Of a stretch of DNA of 64,000 nt, positions 2,364 through 15,145 are shown one piece after another. The notes beneath the pieces are model-generated. The model worked only from the letters and a program-made list of their open reading frames with translations, made no database searches and was not told the origin of the DNA. This DNA comes from Clostridium sp. Marseille-P3244 (GTDB lineage: Bacteria > Bacillota > Clostridia > Lachnospirales > Lachnospiraceae): assembly GCF_900120155.1 (NCBI RefSeq), contig NZ_LT635549.1, positions 1 to 64,000 of the forward strand. Reading direction: 5' to 3'. The position numbers were made by a program, and so were the translations under genes. Numbering within the stretch: the stretch's first letter is position 1; every line of letters starts with the position of its first letter.

Positions 2364-2410
2364 GTAAGCATTTCGATATTCTCTTTTGATTATCTCTTGG
2401 GTAACCGAGA

Positions 2411-2427
2411 TTAACGTTTGGAGAACT
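2411..2427. repeat. Candidate attL: copy of the rpsI 3' end
   Basis: ttaacgtttggagaact matches ttatcgtttggagaact at 15129-15145 (stop codon and last codons of rpsI) in 16 of 17 positions, same orientation, including 13 identical bases in a row. The integrase gene lies just inside the other copy. The spacing of 12.7 kb fits a phage satellite or small integrative element. Confidence 0.5.
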
Positions 2428-3924: not shown

Positions 3925-4033
3925 AATCTAAATCCTTTCTTGATTTCTGACCGGACTGCCTCTATAATTAAGACAATCCGGCTTTTCCTATGTGTTGTCG
4001 GGTTACTTAGCCTTTGTTGAAGTGCCAGCTTCT

Positions 4034-4147
4034 TCAGAGGCTTTTCTCAGTTTCTAATATGGTTTTTACAAAGAAATAGATATTTCTTAGAAACCGTTCG
4101 TTTTTCATCTCTTGTATCATTTCAATAATAAGTTTCTTATAGTCCAT
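4034..4147 (-). CDS. Very small protein (37 aa), unknown function
   Basis: MDYKKLIIEMIQEMKNERFL... ends in TILETEKSL. An AGGAGGT lies 6 nt upstream of the ATG, which argues for real translation. It is helical and amphipathic, with alternating basic and acidic residues. I recall short proteins of this kind next to regulators in clostridial mobile elements, but I cannot name a family with confidence. It lies between the 106-residue gene and the 80-residue gene. Confidence 0.6.
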   Translation of the reverse strand: MDYKKLIIEMIQEMKNERFLRNIYFFVKTILETEKSL

Positions 4148-4725: not shown

Positions 4726-4754
4726 ATTATACTGTATATGGTCGTATCTATCAA
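4726..4754 (-). promoter_or_regulatory. Leftward promoter with an operator in the spacer
   Basis: On the minus strand: TTGATA (4754-4749), a 17-bp spacer, TATAAT (4731-4726). The spacer contains one full copy of the repeat TGTATATGGTCGTA (4733-4746). Bound repressor would cover the promoter completely. Confidence 0.65.
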
Positions 4755-4810
4755 TAGACATACTTCACAAATATACGACTATATATTTGTTTATCTTGTA
4801 TATGGTCGTA
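4733..4810. repeat. Operator-like 14-bp repeats between divergent genes
   Basis: TGTATATGGTCGTA occurs exactly at 4733-4746 and 4797-4810, with an inverted imperfect copy at 4774-4787 (tacgactatatatt). The first copy fills the spacer of the leftward promoter. The second overlaps the -35 and spacer of a rightward promoter (TTGTAT 4796-4801, 16 bp, TAATAT 4818-4823). These are likely binding sites of the ribbon-helix-helix protein at 4867-5082. The rest of the 4555-4866 gap shows nothing else I can name. Confidence 0.6.
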
Positions 4811-4866: not shown

Positions 4867-5082
4867 TTGGCAGATAATAAGAAAAGTACATACAGAGGCT
4901 TTACTCCTGCTCAGGCAGAAGCGCACAAACGATATATGAAAGATTTTGTAGAGATTAAAGTCCGCATGACCGCTGATAAAAGAAGTCTGGTTCAGAGCCA
5001 TGCCGCCAAAATGGGCGAGAGTGCAACCGGCTTTATCAATAGGGCGATTGATGAGACTATGGAGCGTGATAATCAAGAGTAA
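4867..5082 (+). CDS. Ribbon-helix-helix (Arc/CopG-like) DNA-binding protein
   Basis: A 71-residue protein starting at TTG (MADNKKSTYRGFTPAQAEAH) after gaaagaaggtg. The C-terminal half has the Arc-like pattern: a beta strand (VEIKVRMTADKRSLVQSHAA), a turn, then a helix (GESATGFINRAIDETMER). Proteins of this type bind DNA as dimers of dimers at short repeats. Directly upstream are three copies of a 14-bp repeat overlapping both divergent promoters. The simplest reading is an autoregulator that also controls the leftward genes at 4554 and below. The non-ATG start fits low expression. Confidence 0.75.
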   Translation: MADNKKSTYRGFTPAQAEAHKRYMKDFVEIKVRMTADKRSLVQSHAAKMGESATGFINRAIDETMERDNQE

Positions 5083-5256
5083 CCGTTACAGAATAACCGT
5101 ACCTGTCGGATTTTGTGTTGTAACGGATATTAAATCCCACAACCATTATAATTAATACCAAAATTTCTCTTGATAATTTGAGCAATTTGACAGTATCTTT
5201 TTTTACGTTTTCGTGTATAATATAGGTAAGGAATCAAATGATTTCTGTTTTGAGGC

Positions 5257-5346
5257 GTTTGTCAAAAGTGCCTGTCTAAAAAAAATTGAAGAAATTGTGT
5301 AGGGGTTTGTCGGATGTACCTGTCTAAAAAAAACCGAAGAAATTAT
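5257..5346 (+). ncRNA. Type III antitoxin RNA: two 48-nt-period direct repeats
   Basis: Two direct repeats of about 40 nt lie at 5257-5296 and 5305-5344. Both read gtttgtc....gt.cctgtctaaaaaaaa..gaagaaatt and they are spaced 48 nt apart. A hairpin follows at 5347-5368, then a toxin gene with the ToxN/TenpN pattern. In type III systems the repeat RNA is cut by the toxin into units that bind and block it, and the hairpin between repeats and gene limits toxin expression. The number of repeats (two) and their period fit the range known for such antitoxins. A TATAAT at 5216-5221 could start the transcript; its -35 is unclear. Confidence 0.7.
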
Positions 5347-5368
5347 AAGGGGCTTAAACAAGTCCCTT
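5347..5368 (+). terminator. Attenuating hairpin between antitoxin repeats and toxin
   Basis: aaggggctt...aagtccctt forms a 9-bp stem with a short loop and a U-rich tail (attttat). In type III toxin-antitoxin loci such a terminator gives excess antitoxin RNA and a smaller amount of read-through toxin mRNA. Confidence 0.65.
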
Positions 5369-5390
5369 ATTTTATACATAGGAGTTAAAA

Positions 5391-5876
5391 ATGATTGAAC
5401 CTCATTGTTGTTTTATTAAAGAACAGTATTTTATTGACAATCCAAATTTAATAAATATGCTTGATCCTGGAAATACAGATAAGCAATCGAAAAGGACTCA
5501 TTTATGTGTTGAAATAAATATCAACAATAATACTGTATACTTACCATTAAGAAACAATCTTGGTATTCCAGTCCGTAAATTCGGAAAGATTGGCTACCCT
5601 GTTCCTTCAAATAAACGTCCGAATGCCGGGCTTGATTATAGATACAGCTTAATAATTAATGATAAAAAATACATAGAATTCCATACCGCACAGAAACTAC
5701 CAAATTCACAATATAATGTTATAAGTAGGGATTATGATATTATAAAGCAAGAGCTTAACGAATATATCACAAAATATGTAAAAGCAGCCAAAAAGAAGCG
5801 CCATACAATAGAGCCACTTTTTAAGCTATCTAGTTTAATTAACTTTCACAAAGAATTAGGAATAAAAGACAAATAA
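5391..5876 (+). CDS. Type III toxin-antitoxin endoribonuclease (ToxN/TenpN/AbiQ-like)
   Basis: A 161-residue protein with the layout of the ToxN/AbiQ superfamily. It has an N-terminal segment FIKEQYFIDNPNLINMLDPG, a beta strand pair with VYLPLRNNLG, the GLDYRYSLII strand, an IPS-like segment replaced by KLPNSQYNVISRD, and a C-terminal SLINFHKELGI. The PLR(S/N)N and GLDYS-like motifs and the FH.ELG ending match what I remember of TenpN-type toxins best. The decisive support is the context: tandem repeats and a terminator hairpin directly upstream. These toxins cleave RNA and often act in phage abortive infection or in stabilising mobile elements. Ribosome binding site aggag, ATG at 5391. The gene is AT-rich compared with the core genome, as expected for acquired cargo. 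Assignment to a subfamily is tentative. Confidence 0.75.
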   Translation: MIEPHCCFIKEQYFIDNPNLINMLDPGNTDKQSKRTHLCVEININNNTVYLPLRNNLGIPVRKFGKIGYPVPSNKRPNAGLDYRYSLIINDKKYIEFHTAQKLPNSQYNVISRDYDIIKQELNEYITKYVKAAKKKRHTIEPLFKLSSLINFHKELGIKDK

Positions 5877-9529: not shown

Positions 9530-11842
9530 TTAGTCAAATGGCAAAGGCTCATTTTCATCAACCGACATGAACTCTTCATTTGCTAAAACATACCCTCTGA
9601 CAATATTTCGAACGGTTTTTCCATTAACGGTTCCGCTTGCTCCGAATAATCCTCTTGTCTTAAGCTCAATATAGAAATTATTCCGTCCATCAACTCCTAA
9701 TCCAGAATCAGAACACCACTTCGAGTATGTTTCATAAACATCTTTTGCGGATGTATTTTTATCTGACTTCACCAGACACTCTGAAATGAACCGTCCTATT
9801 TTATCTGAATCAGCCTCATATTCATCTGTAGAATCTCTAACGGCAGTGGGCGGCTCAAGACCTTCCTTGCGATACAGATACAAGCCCCTAATCATCCAGT
9901 TTAATATTCCATTGGCTTCTTTACGCAACTCATCTTTCAGCTTTTTGTTCTGCTCATGCTCTCCAAAATGTTTATTAAATGAAACAACTCGAATACGTCC
10001 AGATTTAAAAACTGTCTGATCTGTAATTGTCGGCAGATAATTTGTGTTGATAAGCAACTTGAATTTAGGTGTAAAACAAAATTCATTTTGATGTAAAAAT
10101 CGTGCCGTTACCCTATCTCTGCCCGTCAACGTTTTTACGAGAGACGTATCAAATATCATCTTCTTCGGCGGCTCACTTGCAATTACAAGCCTCGTTCCTG
10201 CCAATTTTGCGATGTCCGGCGAAGCTGTCCTCGAGTCCTTGTTTGCTTTGACCGCTAATGTCTCTGGTGAAATAGTCGCACCATAATCATTAAGGATGGA
10301 GAGAACGGTTTCGCATATTGTTGACTTGCCATTTCGGGTTGATGCTCCGTAAAAGAAATACAGTTCCTCTTCCGCTGTAATCCCTGTCAAACACAATCCG
10401 AGGATTTTCTGCAAATATCTGATTTTTTCTTCATTGCCTTCCATAATTTCATTGATGGTTTTCTCCCACAGCTTACAAGTTGCTTGTGGATCGTAACTTG
10501 CATTACAACATTTTGATAAAAGCAAATCGGCATTATGCTCTAACACCTTCGGCATGTCTCCCGATAGATCAAGAACACAATTCTTAAGATTTAGAAGTAA
10601 ATCATCCTTGTCGAGTTCCGTATTTTCAAAGAAGTTAAGGTCTTTAGCATCATTGACCATTGTGTTTCTATCTCTATAGTTCATCAGCCGCGACGCATAT
10701 TTCAGATAATTCTCTCTATCTAATTCGGACACGTTTACTGCATATGACAGAATGGCGTCCGCAAGTTTTTTTGCATTTCGCTTAGCTTTCATTCCTTCGG
10801 TGTCTGCAATCCACTTGATACCGTTGTAATACATCCAGTCTTTTTGTGTTGGATTATATCGGCTCACATTCTTAAAAACTGTAGAGAACAATTCTGCTGA
10901 CCCCTTATCATTAGTTGCAAATCTCTTAGCCGCATCCAGTTTGACAAGCTGATTGACAAGCGGTGTACCTTTAGGTACGGAGCTACTTCTAACAGTTGTG
11001 CCTGTGGGTACGGTTATATCTGTAACGGCTGTATTTTCAGCTATGAGCTTTTGTAAATCCTCTTTGGAATGATTGCTCATATAATCTGTAATATCGCCTT
11101 TTTCTGGCACCTCTGGCGGTATAATGACTCTTGCCCGTCCGACTGTATTTATCAGTCCGGCAATCCTGTTAGCGTCCGCACGCCCCGGATTATCATTGTC
11201 TCCAAACACAATCACGTTAGCACCTTTTAAATAAGGTAGTATTGCCTGCTTGAATGTTCGCACAGCTCCACAAGTAAAAGCGATATATCCATACTTCCAT
11301 AAAGTAAGAGTGTCTTTCTCGCCCTCTGCATAACAGATCAGCGTTCCTTGCTTGATTGCCTGCTGAAGCTGTTTAATGCGACCGTTACAAAAAACCGATA
11401 GAGATGTATCTATTCCATCCAACCCGTCAATCCACGTATTATTTTCATCATAATGGCCTTGCGGAAATTGTTTCTTACCCTCTCGATCTAGAATCTTGTA
11501 TTTTGTATGAGTTTGTTCTCCTGTGTTAATGTTGTATAGGTCATATCGTGCCTGAGAATATTTTTCGAGCCAATATTGTTTTTTAGATACTCGCTTCGCT
11601 GTTTGTTGTGGTGATTGATAATCTGTCCACAATCCGGCATCCTTCTTGCACCTATGATATATACTTCCGCATACATGGCAATAATGAAGAACCTTTTCAT
11701 TTTCTAATGTAAGAAATGCGCTTTCCGCTTTATCGTCATGATATAGGCAACAATATCGAATACCATTTTTATAAGGAATAACCTTTTTACTTCTTGAGCG
11801 AATATATCTTTCTGTGTCTCGGTATTCTTCCTGCGGAGTCAT
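9530..11842 (-). CDS. Primase-helicase (P4/D5 type, SF3) replication protein
   Basis: A 770-residue protein. The N-terminus has a primase-type zinc motif (CCLYHDDK...HYCHVCG, with further cysteines). Then comes a TOPRIM domain with LICYAEGEKDTLTLWKYG and VIVFGDNDNPGRADANRI. A linker rich in Thr and Ser (residues about 275-300) leads to a D5-N-like region. The SF3 helicase core follows, with Walker A GASTRNGKSTICE, the ATPase segment LAGTRLVIASEPPKKM, and the arginine region FKLLINTNYLPTITD. The C-terminal domain (about 690-770) is D5-C-like, probably for origin binding. Such fusions start and unwind replication of satellites like P4 and of SaPI-type islands. It overlaps the upstream gene by one base. 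An iteron-rich inverted repeat lies just past its 3' end. Confidence 0.9.
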   Translation of the reverse strand: MTPQEEYRDTERYIRSRSKKVIPYKNGIRYCCLYHDDKAESAFLTLENEKVLHYCHVCGSIYHRCKKDAGLWTDYQSPQQTAKRVSKKQYWLEKYSQARYDLYNINTGEQTHTKYKILDREGKKQFPQGHYDENNTWIDGLDGIDTSLSVFCNGRIKQLQQAIKQGTLICYAEGEKDTLTLWKYGYIAFTCGAVRTFKQAILPYLKGANVIVFGDNDNPGRADANRIAGLINTVGRARVIIPPEVPEKGDITDYMSNHSKEDLQKLIAENTAVTDITVPTGTTVRSSSVPKGTPLVNQLVKLDAAKRFATNDKGSAELFSTVFKNVSRYNPTQKDWMYYNGIKWIADTEGMKAKRNAKKLADAILSYAVNVSELDRENYLKYASRLMNYRDRNTMVNDAKDLNFFENTELDKDDLLLNLKNCVLDLSGDMPKVLEHNADLLLSKCCNASYDPQATCKLWEKTINEIMEGNEEKIRYLQKILGLCLTGITAEEELYFFYGASTRNGKSTICETVLSILNDYGATISPETLAVKANKDSRTASPDIAKLAGTRLVIASEPPKKMIFDTSLVKTLTGRDRVTARFLHQNEFCFTPKFKLLINTNYLPTITDQTVFKSGRIRVVSFNKHFGEHEQNKKLKDELRKEANGILNWMIRGLYLYRKEGLEPPTAVRDSTDEYEADSDKIGRFISECLVKSDKNTSAKDVYETYSKWCSDSGLGVDGRNNFYIELKTRGLFGASGTVNGKTVRNIVRGYVLANEEFMSVDENEPLPFD

Positions 11843-13277: not shown

Positions 13278-14459
13278 ATGGCACTCATAAAATGCCCCGA
13301 ATGTGGATGGGATAAAGTATCTGATTTAGCGGATAAATGTCCTCAGTGCGGCTATCCCTTACAAAATACCGTTACCACACAAAAGCCCCGTTCTAAACGA
13401 CACAAACGCCCGTCCAGAGCCGCCAACGGTGCAGGAAGTATCTACAATACCGGCAGACCACACAAGCCATTCCGGGCAGTTGCAACACTCGGTTTTGAAC
13501 TTGATCCCGTCACACACAAATCAAAGCAGATCAGAAAAACTGTAGGATATTATGAGACTCGTGAAGCGGCTGTTGTGGCTCTCGCTCGATTTAAGGTAAA
13601 TCCTCTTGCGCTCCCAGAGACAACTACAGTCAGAGAAGTTTATGAGCGTTGGTCTGCAAAGCATTTTGAAGGCAAAAAAGACGGCACAATCAAGAAATAC
13701 AGAGCCGCCTTTAATCTTCTTGTTCCGATATGGGAGAAACCCTTTGCTAATGTACTTTTGGATGAATGGCAGAGCATAGCAGATAATTCAGAGAAGAACG
13801 CTCCCACCCTCAAAGATTATAAAATTCTTGTCGGCCAGCTTTACAAATTCGCTATCATGCACGATATTGTGACGGCATCACAGGATAAATCAAAATATAT
13901 TGACCTGTCGAACTTCGGCAATCCAAACGCCAGAAAACGGAAACGCTTTACTTCTGAAGAAATAGAAACTCTGTGGACGCTCAAAGACTCAGATATTTAT
14001 TATACGGTTATTCTCATGCTGATTTATACGGGTGTCCGCATATCAGAATTTCTTGAACTAAAAAAAGAGAATGTAAATCTCACAGAACGGTGGTTTGATG
14101 TAACGGCTTCTAAAACCTCCGCTGGAGTCCGTAAAGTTCCGATTGCAGACAAGGTATATCCGTTCTTTGAATATTGGTATCATCTGAATGACTGTGAATA
14201 TCTGTTATCTACGCCGGACGGAGCAGGCTTCAAATACAGAAATTATTATGATGGTTATTGGACACCTCTCATGAGTGCCGCCCAGATGGATCACACGCCG
14301 CATGATACCCGTCATACCTGCATTTCATTGTTGACAGAGGCCGCAGTTGATGAACGTCTTATTCAGCAAATCGTAGGGCATAAAGGTGCAAACGTCACAC
14401 GGTCTGTCTACACTCATGTAGATATTGCCAACCTGTTAGGAGCAATCAATAAAATATGA
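13278..14459 (+). CDS. Tyrosine recombinase (integrase) with N-terminal zinc ribbon
   Basis: A 393-residue protein. Residues 1-27 form a zinc ribbon with two CxxC pairs (CPECGWDKVSDLADKCPQCG). After a basic linker (RSKRHKRPSRAANGAGSIYN) comes an arm-binding domain, a core-binding SAM-like domain (about residues 115-210), and the catalytic domain. The catalytic Arg is in TGVRISEFLE, the HxxR in HDTRHTCISL, the second His in VGHKG, and the Tyr in SVYTHVD. It integrates and, with an excisionase, excises the element. The gene is co-transcribed with the repressor. Arm-type repeats (gggtgctat twice, about 14996-15014) and the rpsI 3' end lie about 0.5-0.7 kb downstream. The zinc ribbon is an added DNA- or protein-binding part not present in Tn916-type integrases. 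Confidence 0.93.
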   Translation: MALIKCPECGWDKVSDLADKCPQCGYPLQNTVTTQKPRSKRHKRPSRAANGAGSIYNTGRPHKPFRAVATLGFELDPVTHKSKQIRKTVGYYETREAAVVALARFKVNPLALPETTTVREVYERWSAKHFEGKKDGTIKKYRAAFNLLVPIWEKPFANVLLDEWQSIADNSEKNAPTLKDYKILVGQLYKFAIMHDIVTASQDKSKYIDLSNFGNPNARKRKRFTSEEIETLWTLKDSDIYYTVILMLIYTGVRISEFLELKKENVNLTERWFDVTASKTSAGVRKVPIADKVYPFFEYWYHLNDCEYLLSTPDGAGFKYRNYYDGYWTPLMSAAQMDHTPHDTRHTCISLLTEAAVDERLIQQIVGHKGANVTRSVYTHVDIANLLGAINKI

Positions 14460-15103: not shown

Positions 15104-15128
15104 GCTAATTTCTTTAATTGTCGATAAA

Positions 15129-15145
15129 TTATCGTTTGGAGAACT
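15129..15145. repeat. Candidate attR at the rpsI 3' end
   Basis: ttatcgtttggagaact covers the rpsI stop and last codons and matches 2411-2427 in 16 of 17 positions. The rpsI reading frame is intact, as expected when an element uses the 3' end of a gene as its site. Confidence 0.5.

What the first reader, a model, noticed from the sequence alone, without database searches (positions are those of the whole stretch)
5257..5876. Type III toxin-antitoxin locus (repeat RNA plus ToxN/TenpN-like nuclease)
Seen: two 40-nt direct repeats with 48-nt period, a terminator-like hairpin, then a 161-residue gene with PLRNN, GLDY and FHKELG motifs. Known: type III systems have exactly this order, and the toxin is inhibited by the repeat RNA it cuts. 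Inference: this is a complete type III system carried as cargo of an integrative element, so it may serve stabilisation or phage defence. The repeats are only two and seem to differ at about eight positions, so the pseudoknot unit may be unusual.
Basis: partly seen in the sequence, partly recalled or inferred. Interest (0 to 1): 0.8.

Follow-up and report, generated by a model that had tools for sequence, protein, structure and literature searches.

The report
TenpIN-type RNA-antitoxin toxin pair
A bacterium's mobile element carries a known kind of toxin gene held in check by a small folded RNA made of two repeats; in its relatives the two repeats are two different, separately conserved RNA knots, and some phages carry the same RNA pair without the toxin, which suggests a natural way for phages to disarm this defence.

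Summary
Confirmed: 5216-5876 holds a -10 element, 5' hairpin, two 48-nt repeats, terminator hairpin, RBS and a 161-aa toxin gene. [quoted passage not shown]), and an AlphaFold model whose best PDB matches are ToxN and CptN. Two repeats of about 50 nt is normal for TenpIN. The repeats fit H-type pseudoknots: on 71 distinct units helix S2 is paired in 284 of 284 cells with both-side changes at all four pairs. The units are not equivalent: same-position units are more alike than different-position units (0 of 5000 swaps reach it), and the fourth S1 pair is standard in 38 of 47 first units but G.A in 42 of 47 second units. The locus is cargo of a 12.7-kb satellite-like element in rpsI, with an empty site in 4 of 29 relatives' loci. 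Unexpected: five complete phage genomes and one viral contig carry the unit pair, and a sixth phage one unit, with no toxin found; perhaps natural RNA decoys. Function is inferred throughout.

The parts
5216..5221 (+). -10 element TATAAT of the likely antitoxin promoter (no good -35 at 17 nt; a TTGACA lies 23 nt upstream)
   Evidence: sequence; the best -10 in the last 75 nt before unit 1 is 6 of 6 in 36 of 49 loci, picked as the best match; the consensus scan did not call a promoter here; inference
5229..5246 (+). 5' leader hairpin, 7 pairs (one G.U), loop 4, just after the expected transcription start
   Evidence: leader stem scoring at least 5 in 37 of 49 loci against 12.8 expected from shuffled leaders, at least 6 in 31 against 4.5; for the window alone 18 of 200 shuffles do as well
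5253..5300 (+). antitoxin unit 1; S1 5253-5256 with 5270-5273 (AGGC/GCCU), S2 5262-5265 with 5286-5289 (UCAA/UUGA), A-rich loop between
5301..5348 (+). antitoxin unit 2; S1 5301-5304 with 5318-5321 (AGGG/ACCU, fourth position G.A), S2 5310-5313 with 5334-5337 (UCGG/CCGA)
5345..5370 (+). terminator-like hairpin between antitoxin and toxin (overlaps the last 4 nt of unit 2)
   Evidence: z -4.8; at this place in 43 of 49 loci by a strict rule (0.1 expected from shuffles) and 48 of 49 by a permissive one (5.1 expected)
5380..5384 (+). ribosome-binding site AGGAG
   Evidence: sequence
5391..5876 (+). tenpN-like toxin gene, 161 aa, predicted endoribonuclease
   Evidence: NCBIfam NF047358 E 4e-22; AF2 pLDDT 93.6; Foldseek ranks 1-4 are 4ato, 4rmo, 2xd0, 7d8o, and 4glk is sixth
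2410..2427 (.). attachment-site copy at the far end of the element
   Evidence: 18-nt direct repeat with 15128-15145, 17 of 18 identical
15128..15145 (.). attachment-site copy at the 3' end of rpsI
   Evidence: empty site in 4 of 29 relatives' rpsI loci
13278..14459 (+). tyrosine integrase of the element
   Evidence: PF00589 1.3e-20, phrog_1 1.4e-48
9530..11842 (-). D5-type primase/helicase of the element
   Evidence: phrog_6088 5.7e-111; PF08706
7976..8617 (-). small-terminase-like protein of the element
   Evidence: PF16677 2.5e-8, above its cut-off; phrog_606 5.8e-7

Best explanation
A type III toxin-antitoxin locus of the TenpIN family, cargo of a satellite-like integrative element. One transcript from the promoter near 5216 makes a short RNA with a 5' hairpin and two H-type pseudoknot units, mostly stopped at the terminator; read-through yields a little toxin mRNA. 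The toxin, a MazF/ToxN-fold endoribonuclease, would cut its own precursor RNA into the two units and be held by them in a closed protein-RNA complex. When RNA synthesis is disturbed, as in phage infection or loss of the element, the unstable RNA decays first and the toxin cleaves cell RNA, stabilising the element or aborting infection. Shown here by computation: gene order, family, predicted fold, two covarying helices per unit, positional conservation of the units, element and empty site. Inferred from the known family: transcription, cleavage, neutralisation, complex, biological role.
For: TenpIN model match for the window protein and for 44 of 44 aligned relatives, the window included. AF2 model pLDDT 93.6, pTM 0.89; Foldseek against PDB: 4ato ToxN E 4.4e-4, 4rmo CptN 2.4e-3, 2xd0 and 7d8o ToxN, 4glk AbiQ, probability 0.99-1.00, TM 0.52-0.61. 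Units in 53 of 56 toxin loci examined with the unit profile (49 of 52 without duplicate contigs). Covariation: S2 284 of 284 cells paired, 4 of 4 pairs with both-side changes; whole structure 93.5% paired against 18.7-52.5% when slid. A unit model run over 392 genomes without using the toxin gave 12 strong matches, all in pairs ahead of six tenpN genes in five genomes.
Against: The toxin scores 79 bits, under the curated 90-bit equivalog cut-off. No relevant PDB match by sequence; only one Foldseek match has E below 0.001. No PADLOC match and no Rfam match at its cut-off. RNAalifold on the 71 units predicts S2 but not S1 (it cannot model pseudoknots), one S1 pair never varies and another is unpaired in 36 of 71, and the count of further pair types does not beat shuffles (169 of 500 reach it). 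Units occur in phages without a toxin found, so units alone do not prove an intact TA locus; 3 of 56 toxin loci have no unit upstream. No expression, cleavage or toxicity data.
Confidence: 0.93

Rival explanations
1. The two units have become specialised: unit 1 (fully paired S1) and unit 2 (G.A at the fourth S1 pair) are both needed and sit at different places of an asymmetric complex, or one is the stable and one the labile inhibitor.
For: Same-position identity 0.735 against cross-position 0.686 over 45 loci, 0 of 5000 swaps reach the difference; in clade B u1-u1 0.92, u2-u2 0.89 but u1-u2 within a locus 0.50, while toxins are 0.67 identical; fourth S1 pair standard in 38 of 47 first units, G.A in 42 of 47 second units.
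Against: Over all 45 loci the two units of one locus are on average as alike (0.738) as same-position units, and in Clostridium-type loci they are nearly the same (0.89), so specialisation is not general. The clades were chosen by eye after seeing the units. A single CptI repeat is fully antitoxic in the solved CptIN system (PMC4627078, section 12 read).
Confidence: 0.4
2. The two units diverged only because diverged repeats are less prone to deletion by recombination or slippage, or by drift without homogenisation; both do the same job.
For: phiCDIF1296T carries one unit that reads as the 5' part of the AR1086-1 first unit joined to the 3' part of its second unit, as a deletion between repeats would leave. 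S2 is kept in every unit.
Against: Drift alone does not readily explain 0.89-0.92 identity within each position where toxins are 0.67 identical, nor the position-specific G.A.
Confidence: 0.4
3. The locus serves mainly to stabilise the element rather than to defend against phages.
For: Carried on a 12.7-kb integrative element; relatives on plasmids (210 records); CptIN stabilises plasmids and did not abort phages in E. coli (section heading and passage of PMC4627078).
Against: Antitoxin units without toxin in phages suggest that the family matters to phages; TenpIN of Photorhabdus aborts phages (passages of PMC5377504 and PMC5449768).
Confidence: 0.35
4. Degenerate relic: toxin or RNA no longer works.
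For: Interrupted T run of the terminator and no good -35 in the window.
Against: Toxin open over its full length; both units keep S2 and at least three S1 pairs, with compensating differences between them.
Confidence: 0.05

Closest known systems
TenpIN family (Type III ENdogenous to Photorhabdus), NCBIfam NF047358
   Same: Toxin family, two repeats of about 50 nt, terminator between RNA and toxin gene, mobile context
   Different: 79 bits, below the model's 90-bit cut-off; its own sequence type of unit (about 46-49 nt period); positional unit types and a 5' leader hairpin that I did not see in the papers searched (the 2012 classification paper is not held)
CptIN of Eubacterium rectale (PDB 4RMO)
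   Same: Two genetic repeats, H-type pseudoknot with a long A-rich loop (PMC4627078), toxin fold (Foldseek rank 2)
   Different: Different toxin family by sequence; its crystal is a 2:2 complex of one 45-nt repeat; no solved TenpIN complex appeared or 75
ToxIN (P. atrosepticum, B. thuringiensis, E. coli) and AbiQ
   Same: Fold and gene order
   Different: 34-36-nt units, 2.8 to 5.5 copies (PMC5086642 section 5; the three systems named there)
phage phiTE pseudo-ToxI
   Same: Phage-borne copy of a type III antitoxin RNA without toxin
   Different: Wild-type phiTE has 1.5 repeats that do not make one full unit; escape needs expansion (PMC3475682 passages). Here five complete phage genomes and one contig carry two complete units, and a sixth phage a single hybrid unit

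Membership tests
Type III TA, TenpIN | toxin homologous to the TenpIN toxin family | tested here: met
   E 4e-22 over profile positions 16-141 of 141; 44 of 44 aligned relatives match
Type III TA, TenpIN | reaches the curated equivalog cut-off (naming threshold, not a biological feature) | tested here: inconclusive
   79 against 90 bits; five further relatives of the same unit type 67.7-88.7, Listeria 78.1, but Bacillus, Klebsiella, Vibrio and L009 homologues 103-136
Type III TA, TenpIN | ToxN/MazF-like fold | tested here: met
   five type III toxins within the first six Foldseek ranks, MazF-like chains in most of the other listed rows
Type III TA, TenpIN | tandem repeats upstream on the same strand | tested here: met
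   units in 53 of 56 loci
Type III TA, TenpIN | terminator between repeats and toxin | tested here: met
   43 of 49 loci by a strict rule, 0.1 expected
Type III TA, TenpIN | repeat unit can form an H-type pseudoknot | tested here: met
   covariation of two interleaved helices; strong for S2, good for three of four S1 pairs
Type III TA, TenpIN | toxin is an RNase that cuts its antitoxin precursor | not testable with these tools
   needs biochemistry
Type III TA, TenpIN | RNA neutralises the toxin by direct binding | not testable with these tools
   needs kill/rescue test
PICI-like phage satellite (the carrier) | integrase, att repeats, replication gene, small terminase, no capsid or tail genes | tested here: inconclusive
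   integrase, primase, terS-like and att found; not every small ORF of the element was scanned, so absence of structural genes is not fully tested
PICI-like phage satellite (the carrier) | induced and packaged by a helper phage | not testable with these tools
   needs induction experiments

The most novel reading that the evidence does not exclude
In this TenpIN subfamily the antitoxin is a two-part RNA whose two pseudoknots are not interchangeable, and phages of related hosts naturally carry the complete pair without the toxin as an RNA decoy that disarms TenpIN from the start of infection. In two of the three phage loci scanned with Rfam the pair lies near skipping-rope RNA (and, in one, drum RNA), RNAs whose function I believe to be unknown (recalled), so these may belong to islands of counter-defence RNAs.
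Probability: 0.45. Interest if true: 0.75.

Novelty: new member of a known kind. Interest (0 to 1): 0.5.

Why it matters
The locus itself adds a member to a known family. What is new is testable: it gives a covariation-supported pseudoknot model for TenpI, for which no solved structure appeared in my searches; it asks why a two-unit antitoxin keeps two different units; and it points to sequenced phages that already carry the antitoxin pair. RNA mimicry of a type III antitoxin is described for phage phiTE, whose wild type lacks a full unit; these phages suggest it may be a standing strategy. It would also offer a first guess at the role of neighbouring phage RNAs.

Tried and rejected
Rfam on the locus: 9 matches up to E 10, none near its gathering score. 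PADLOC: nothing. PDB by sequence, single and profile: nothing relevant. Plain RNA folding of single units gives hairpins with unremarkable energies (z -1.4 and 0.2), as expected since pseudoknots are not modelled; covariation was used instead. Domain-swapped pairing between units: in the 17 of 47 loci whose two units differ in S2, own pairing is 136 of 136 and crossed pairing 106 of 136, so each unit pairs better within itself. Orphan units in bacterial genomes: none among the 12 strong matches in 392 genomes; five weak matches (E 0.002-0.005) were taken as chance, and that search used stricter filters. The other eight toxin-positive genomes hold more distant toxins and no strong match to this unit type. 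Relation of the element to phages at DNA level: no megablast match; two short faecal contigs share the integrase, one of them also a small ORF. Single-protein scans of genome and viral contigs found nothing; alignment-based scans did. Pfam DUF5093 (E 0.0047, below cut-off) dismissed: 1 of 44 relatives, the window itself.

Rows dropped: from 56 toxin loci, 3 have no unit (L024, L046, L062), 4 are duplicate contigs (L002, L005, L006, L014), 2 have unit 1 split by an insert (L035, L052), leaving 47; 45 after removing identical pairs. L066 and L067 are fragments and were not examined; the more distant L004, L007-L013 and L016-L020 were read only for tandem repeats. In one search, 12 of 20 loci beat all 50 shuffles; five of the other eight had been read on the wrong strand and were re-read without shuffles (lag scores 19.5, 32.5, 10, 39, 44); L015 has two diverged units found later by profile; L011 shows two units by eye; L004 shows none. 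L043 (stop in frame), L052 and L064 (partial), L063 (length not a multiple of three) and L029, L031, L065 (near-duplicates or not chosen) were left out of the toxin alignment A4, as were the more distant toxins. The script misread the S1 3' strand of two orphan units (CB473P3 unit 1, L109 unit 1); by eye these are GUCU and GUCC, four pairs each with one G.U in the first.

Full report
Observation. The features are present at the coordinates given. Two tandem 48-nt copies lie at 5253-5300 and 5301-5348, 38 of 48 positions identical; the lag-48 score of 26.5 compares with a maximum of 11 in 50 shuffles. A hairpin with 11 pairs follows at 5345-5370 (z -4.8), then AGGAG and a 161-aa ORF at 5391-5876. 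A unit profile finds no other unit in the 64 kb (next best E 0.86), an exact pattern finds none elsewhere in the 2.97-Mb genome, and the toxin occurs once in it.

Toxin. The only NCBIfam match is TenpIN, E 4e-22, 79 bits against a curated 90. All 44 rows of the alignment, the window included, match the same model. Of ten further proteins scanned, Bacillus, Klebsiella, Vibrio and L009 homologues exceed the cut-off; Listeria and five of this unit type do not. With 44 sequences AlphaFold2 gives pLDDT 93.6 and pTM 0.89. Foldseek against the PDB puts ToxN of B. thuringiensis first (E 4.4e-4, probability 1.00), then CptN, ToxN of P. atrosepticum and of E. coli, a MazF, and AbiQ sixth (TM 0.61). Only the first has E below 0.001, but the type III toxins also hold ranks 1 to 5 with an earlier, weaker model. 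Columns invariant in all 44 include P52-L53-R54, A79-G80-L81-D82, R84, Y125, K135, R137, S147 and N151; which of them are catalytic was not established.

Distribution. The toxin is in 13 of 392 genomes of the order, the window's own included, in 47 loci of named genomes, 21 of them titled Lachnospiraceae and the rest mostly other Clostridia, in 4 viral contigs, in 4 phage records and in 210 plasmid records, 142 Staphylococcus and 27 Listeria. None of the 36 other genomes of the genus that were searched has it, which fits recent gain.

Antitoxin units. A profile of the unit finds units upstream of 53 of 56 toxin loci (49 of 52 without duplicate contigs): two in 51 of them and, in L035 and L052, two with unit 1 split by an insert in its A-rich loop. 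Two is therefore the rule in this group; a passage of PMC12373285 quotes 2.1 repeats of 50 nt for TenpI. A covariance model run over 392 genomes without using the toxin gave 12 strong matches (E 4e-11 or better), all in pairs ahead of six tenpN genes in five genomes, and five weak ones; the other eight toxin-positive genomes hold more distant toxins and no strong match.

Pseudoknot. On 71 distinct units, S1 (alignment columns 3-6 with 20-23) and S2 (12-15 with 39-42) interleave as in an H-type pseudoknot. S2 is paired in 284 of 284 cells and all four pairs show changes on both sides. S1 is paired in 87% of cells: three pairs in 70 or 71 of 71 units (one of them never varies), the fourth in 35 of 71. 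The whole structure is 93.5% paired against 81.4% in column shuffles (0 of 500 reach it) and 18.7-52.5% when slid by 1-3 columns; the number of further pair types does not exceed shuffles (169 of 500 reach it). RNAalifold, which cannot nest both helices, predicts S2 alone. Where the two units of a locus differ in S2 (17 of 47 loci), own pairing is 136 of 136 and crossed pairing 106 of 136. The long A-rich loop resembles that of CptI (PMC4627078, section 12 read).

Two kinds of unit. Over 45 loci, units at the same position are more alike (0.735) than units at different positions in different loci (0.686), and 0 of 5000 random swaps reach this difference; on average the two units of one locus are as alike (0.738) as same-position units. 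The picture differs by group; the groups were drawn by eye after seeing the units. In ten loci of clade B the two units of one locus are 0.50 identical, yet first units are 0.92 and second units 0.89 identical across loci whose toxins are 0.67 identical; in 16 window-like loci the figures are 0.78, 0.84, 0.88 and 0.62; in eight Clostridium-type loci the two units are alike (0.89) and positions are not distinct (0.78, 0.80, cross 0.78). The fourth S1 pair is a standard pair in 38 of 47 first units, and G.A in 42 of 47 second units. I infer separate selection on the two units in two groups; whether they differ in function is open.

Leader and terminator. Between the -10 and unit 1 many loci have a short hairpin whose sequence varies: stems scoring 5 or more in 37 of 49 loci against 12.8 expected, 6 or more in 31 against 4.5, from letter shuffles; for the window itself 18 of 200 shuffles do as well. 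A terminator-like hairpin precedes the toxin in 43 of 49 loci by a strict rule (0.1 expected) and 48 of 49 by a permissive one (5.1 expected). I infer that the leader hairpin protects the RNA's 5' end.

Carrier. An 18-nt repeat, 17 of 18 identical, at 2410-2427 and 15128-15145 lies at the 3' end of rpsI. In 4 of 29 relatives' rpsI loci the sequence left of 2427 runs straight into rpsI over about 140 nt (L084, L085, L079, L074); the other 25 match only to the right of the junction or within about 45 nt of it. The element carries an integrase, a D5 primase/helicase, an HNH protein, a small-terminase-like protein, a sigma-like factor and a serine recombinase, a gene set like that of phage-inducible islands. 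Not every small ORF was scanned, and induction cannot be tested here.

Units without toxin in phages. Pattern and blastn searches showed units in phage genomes where no toxin was found. Enterocloster phages CB473P1, CB473P2, CB473P3 and CB457P2 have two units each (36.5-57.6 bits) in an intergenic stretch. In CB473P1 a TTGACA-18-TAGAAT site lies 48 nt before unit 1; it is the best of 6 promoter-like sites there, where 4.4 are expected by chance. Clostridioides phage AR1086-1 has two units (51.8 and 68.1 bits) about 220 nt before a tRNA-Ser gene; phiCDIF1296T has one (49.3 bits), which reads as a fusion of the two. Viral contig L109 has two (38.0 and 59.1 bits). By eye, the 9 distinct orphan units keep all four S2 pairs (two of them G.U in phiCDIF1296T) and three or four S1 pairs. 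Three of the four Enterocloster pairs are identical, so these records are not independent. tblastn with the window toxin (E 1e-5) and with a clade-B toxin (E 0.01) each finds a toxin in 4 of 50,697 phage records, none of these; a strongly diverged toxin is not excluded. Three of these loci were scanned with Rfam: in L134 (CB473P1) a skipping-rope RNA begins 34 nt after the pair, L109 has two drum RNAs before the pair and a skipping-rope RNA 0.76 kb after it, and L136 has only the tRNA. The nearest precedent is phiTE, whose wild type has 1.5 pseudo-ToxI repeats that do not make one full unit (PMC3475682 passages). My reading, at about even odds, is that these are natural RNA decoys; a relic of a lost toxin, or another use of the RNA, is not excluded.

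Literature limits. I searched the held open library for TenpIN and for diverged or phage-borne antitoxin repeats and saw no report of positional unit types or of complete TenpI pairs in phages; most papers appeared only in listings, and the 2012 classification paper is not held, so this is not proof of absence. Passages were read of PMC5377504, PMC4885055, PMC12373285, PMC3475682, PMC5449768 and PMC11481870; passages and two sections of PMC5086642; passages and one section of PMC4627078.

Verdict. Interest is raised by the two unit types and the phage copies, both of which are simple to test.

Noticed in passing
L133, L134, L135, L139 (Enterocloster phages OP172757, OP172755, OP172754, OP172756), locus 3993-4088: Pair of TenpI units in an intergenic stretch of complete phage genomes in which no toxin was found; three of the four pairs are identical.
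   Followed up: yes
L136 3155-3248 (OR397124) and L137 4336-4381 (CP011970): Units without toxin found in two C. difficile phages; the second has one unit that looks like a fusion of the first phage's two. A C. difficile plasmid record, NZ_CP083617.1, also matches (not fetched).
   Followed up: partly
L109 5703-6915: Viral contig with two drum RNAs, an orphan TenpI pair, a PemK/MazF-like gene and a skipping-rope RNA within 1.2 kb, and a homing-endonuclease-like gene upstream: possible island of counter-defence RNAs.
   Followed up: partly
L134 4121-4200: Skipping-rope RNA (RF02924) directly after the orphan unit pair, a second case of the association.
   Followed up: no
L035 and L052, upstream of the toxin: Unit 1 is split by an insert (hairpin-like in L052) inside the A-rich loop; the S1 and S2 strands remain on either side.
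   Followed up: no
window 4727-4746, 4791-4810 and 4867-5082: A repeated 20-mer ahead of a small 71-aa protein with weak matches to small DNA-binding families; possibly an operator and its repressor next to the TA locus.
   Followed up: no
L106 and L107 (MT836660, 9.8 kb; MT836114, 12.9 kb): Short phage-collection contigs from human faecal samples with a related integrase (55% and 49%), possibly packaged satellites.
   Followed up: partly
L019 1474-1953 (Vibrio phage 10N.286.49.B11_PE001): A TenpIN toxin with two nearly identical 49-nt units beside an integrase-like gene near the end of a 13.7-kb Vinavirales phage genome.
   Followed up: no
L043 3001-3447, L063 3001-3457: Toxin copies with a stop in frame (L043) or a matched length that is not a multiple of three (L063), while both antitoxin units remain.
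   Followed up: no
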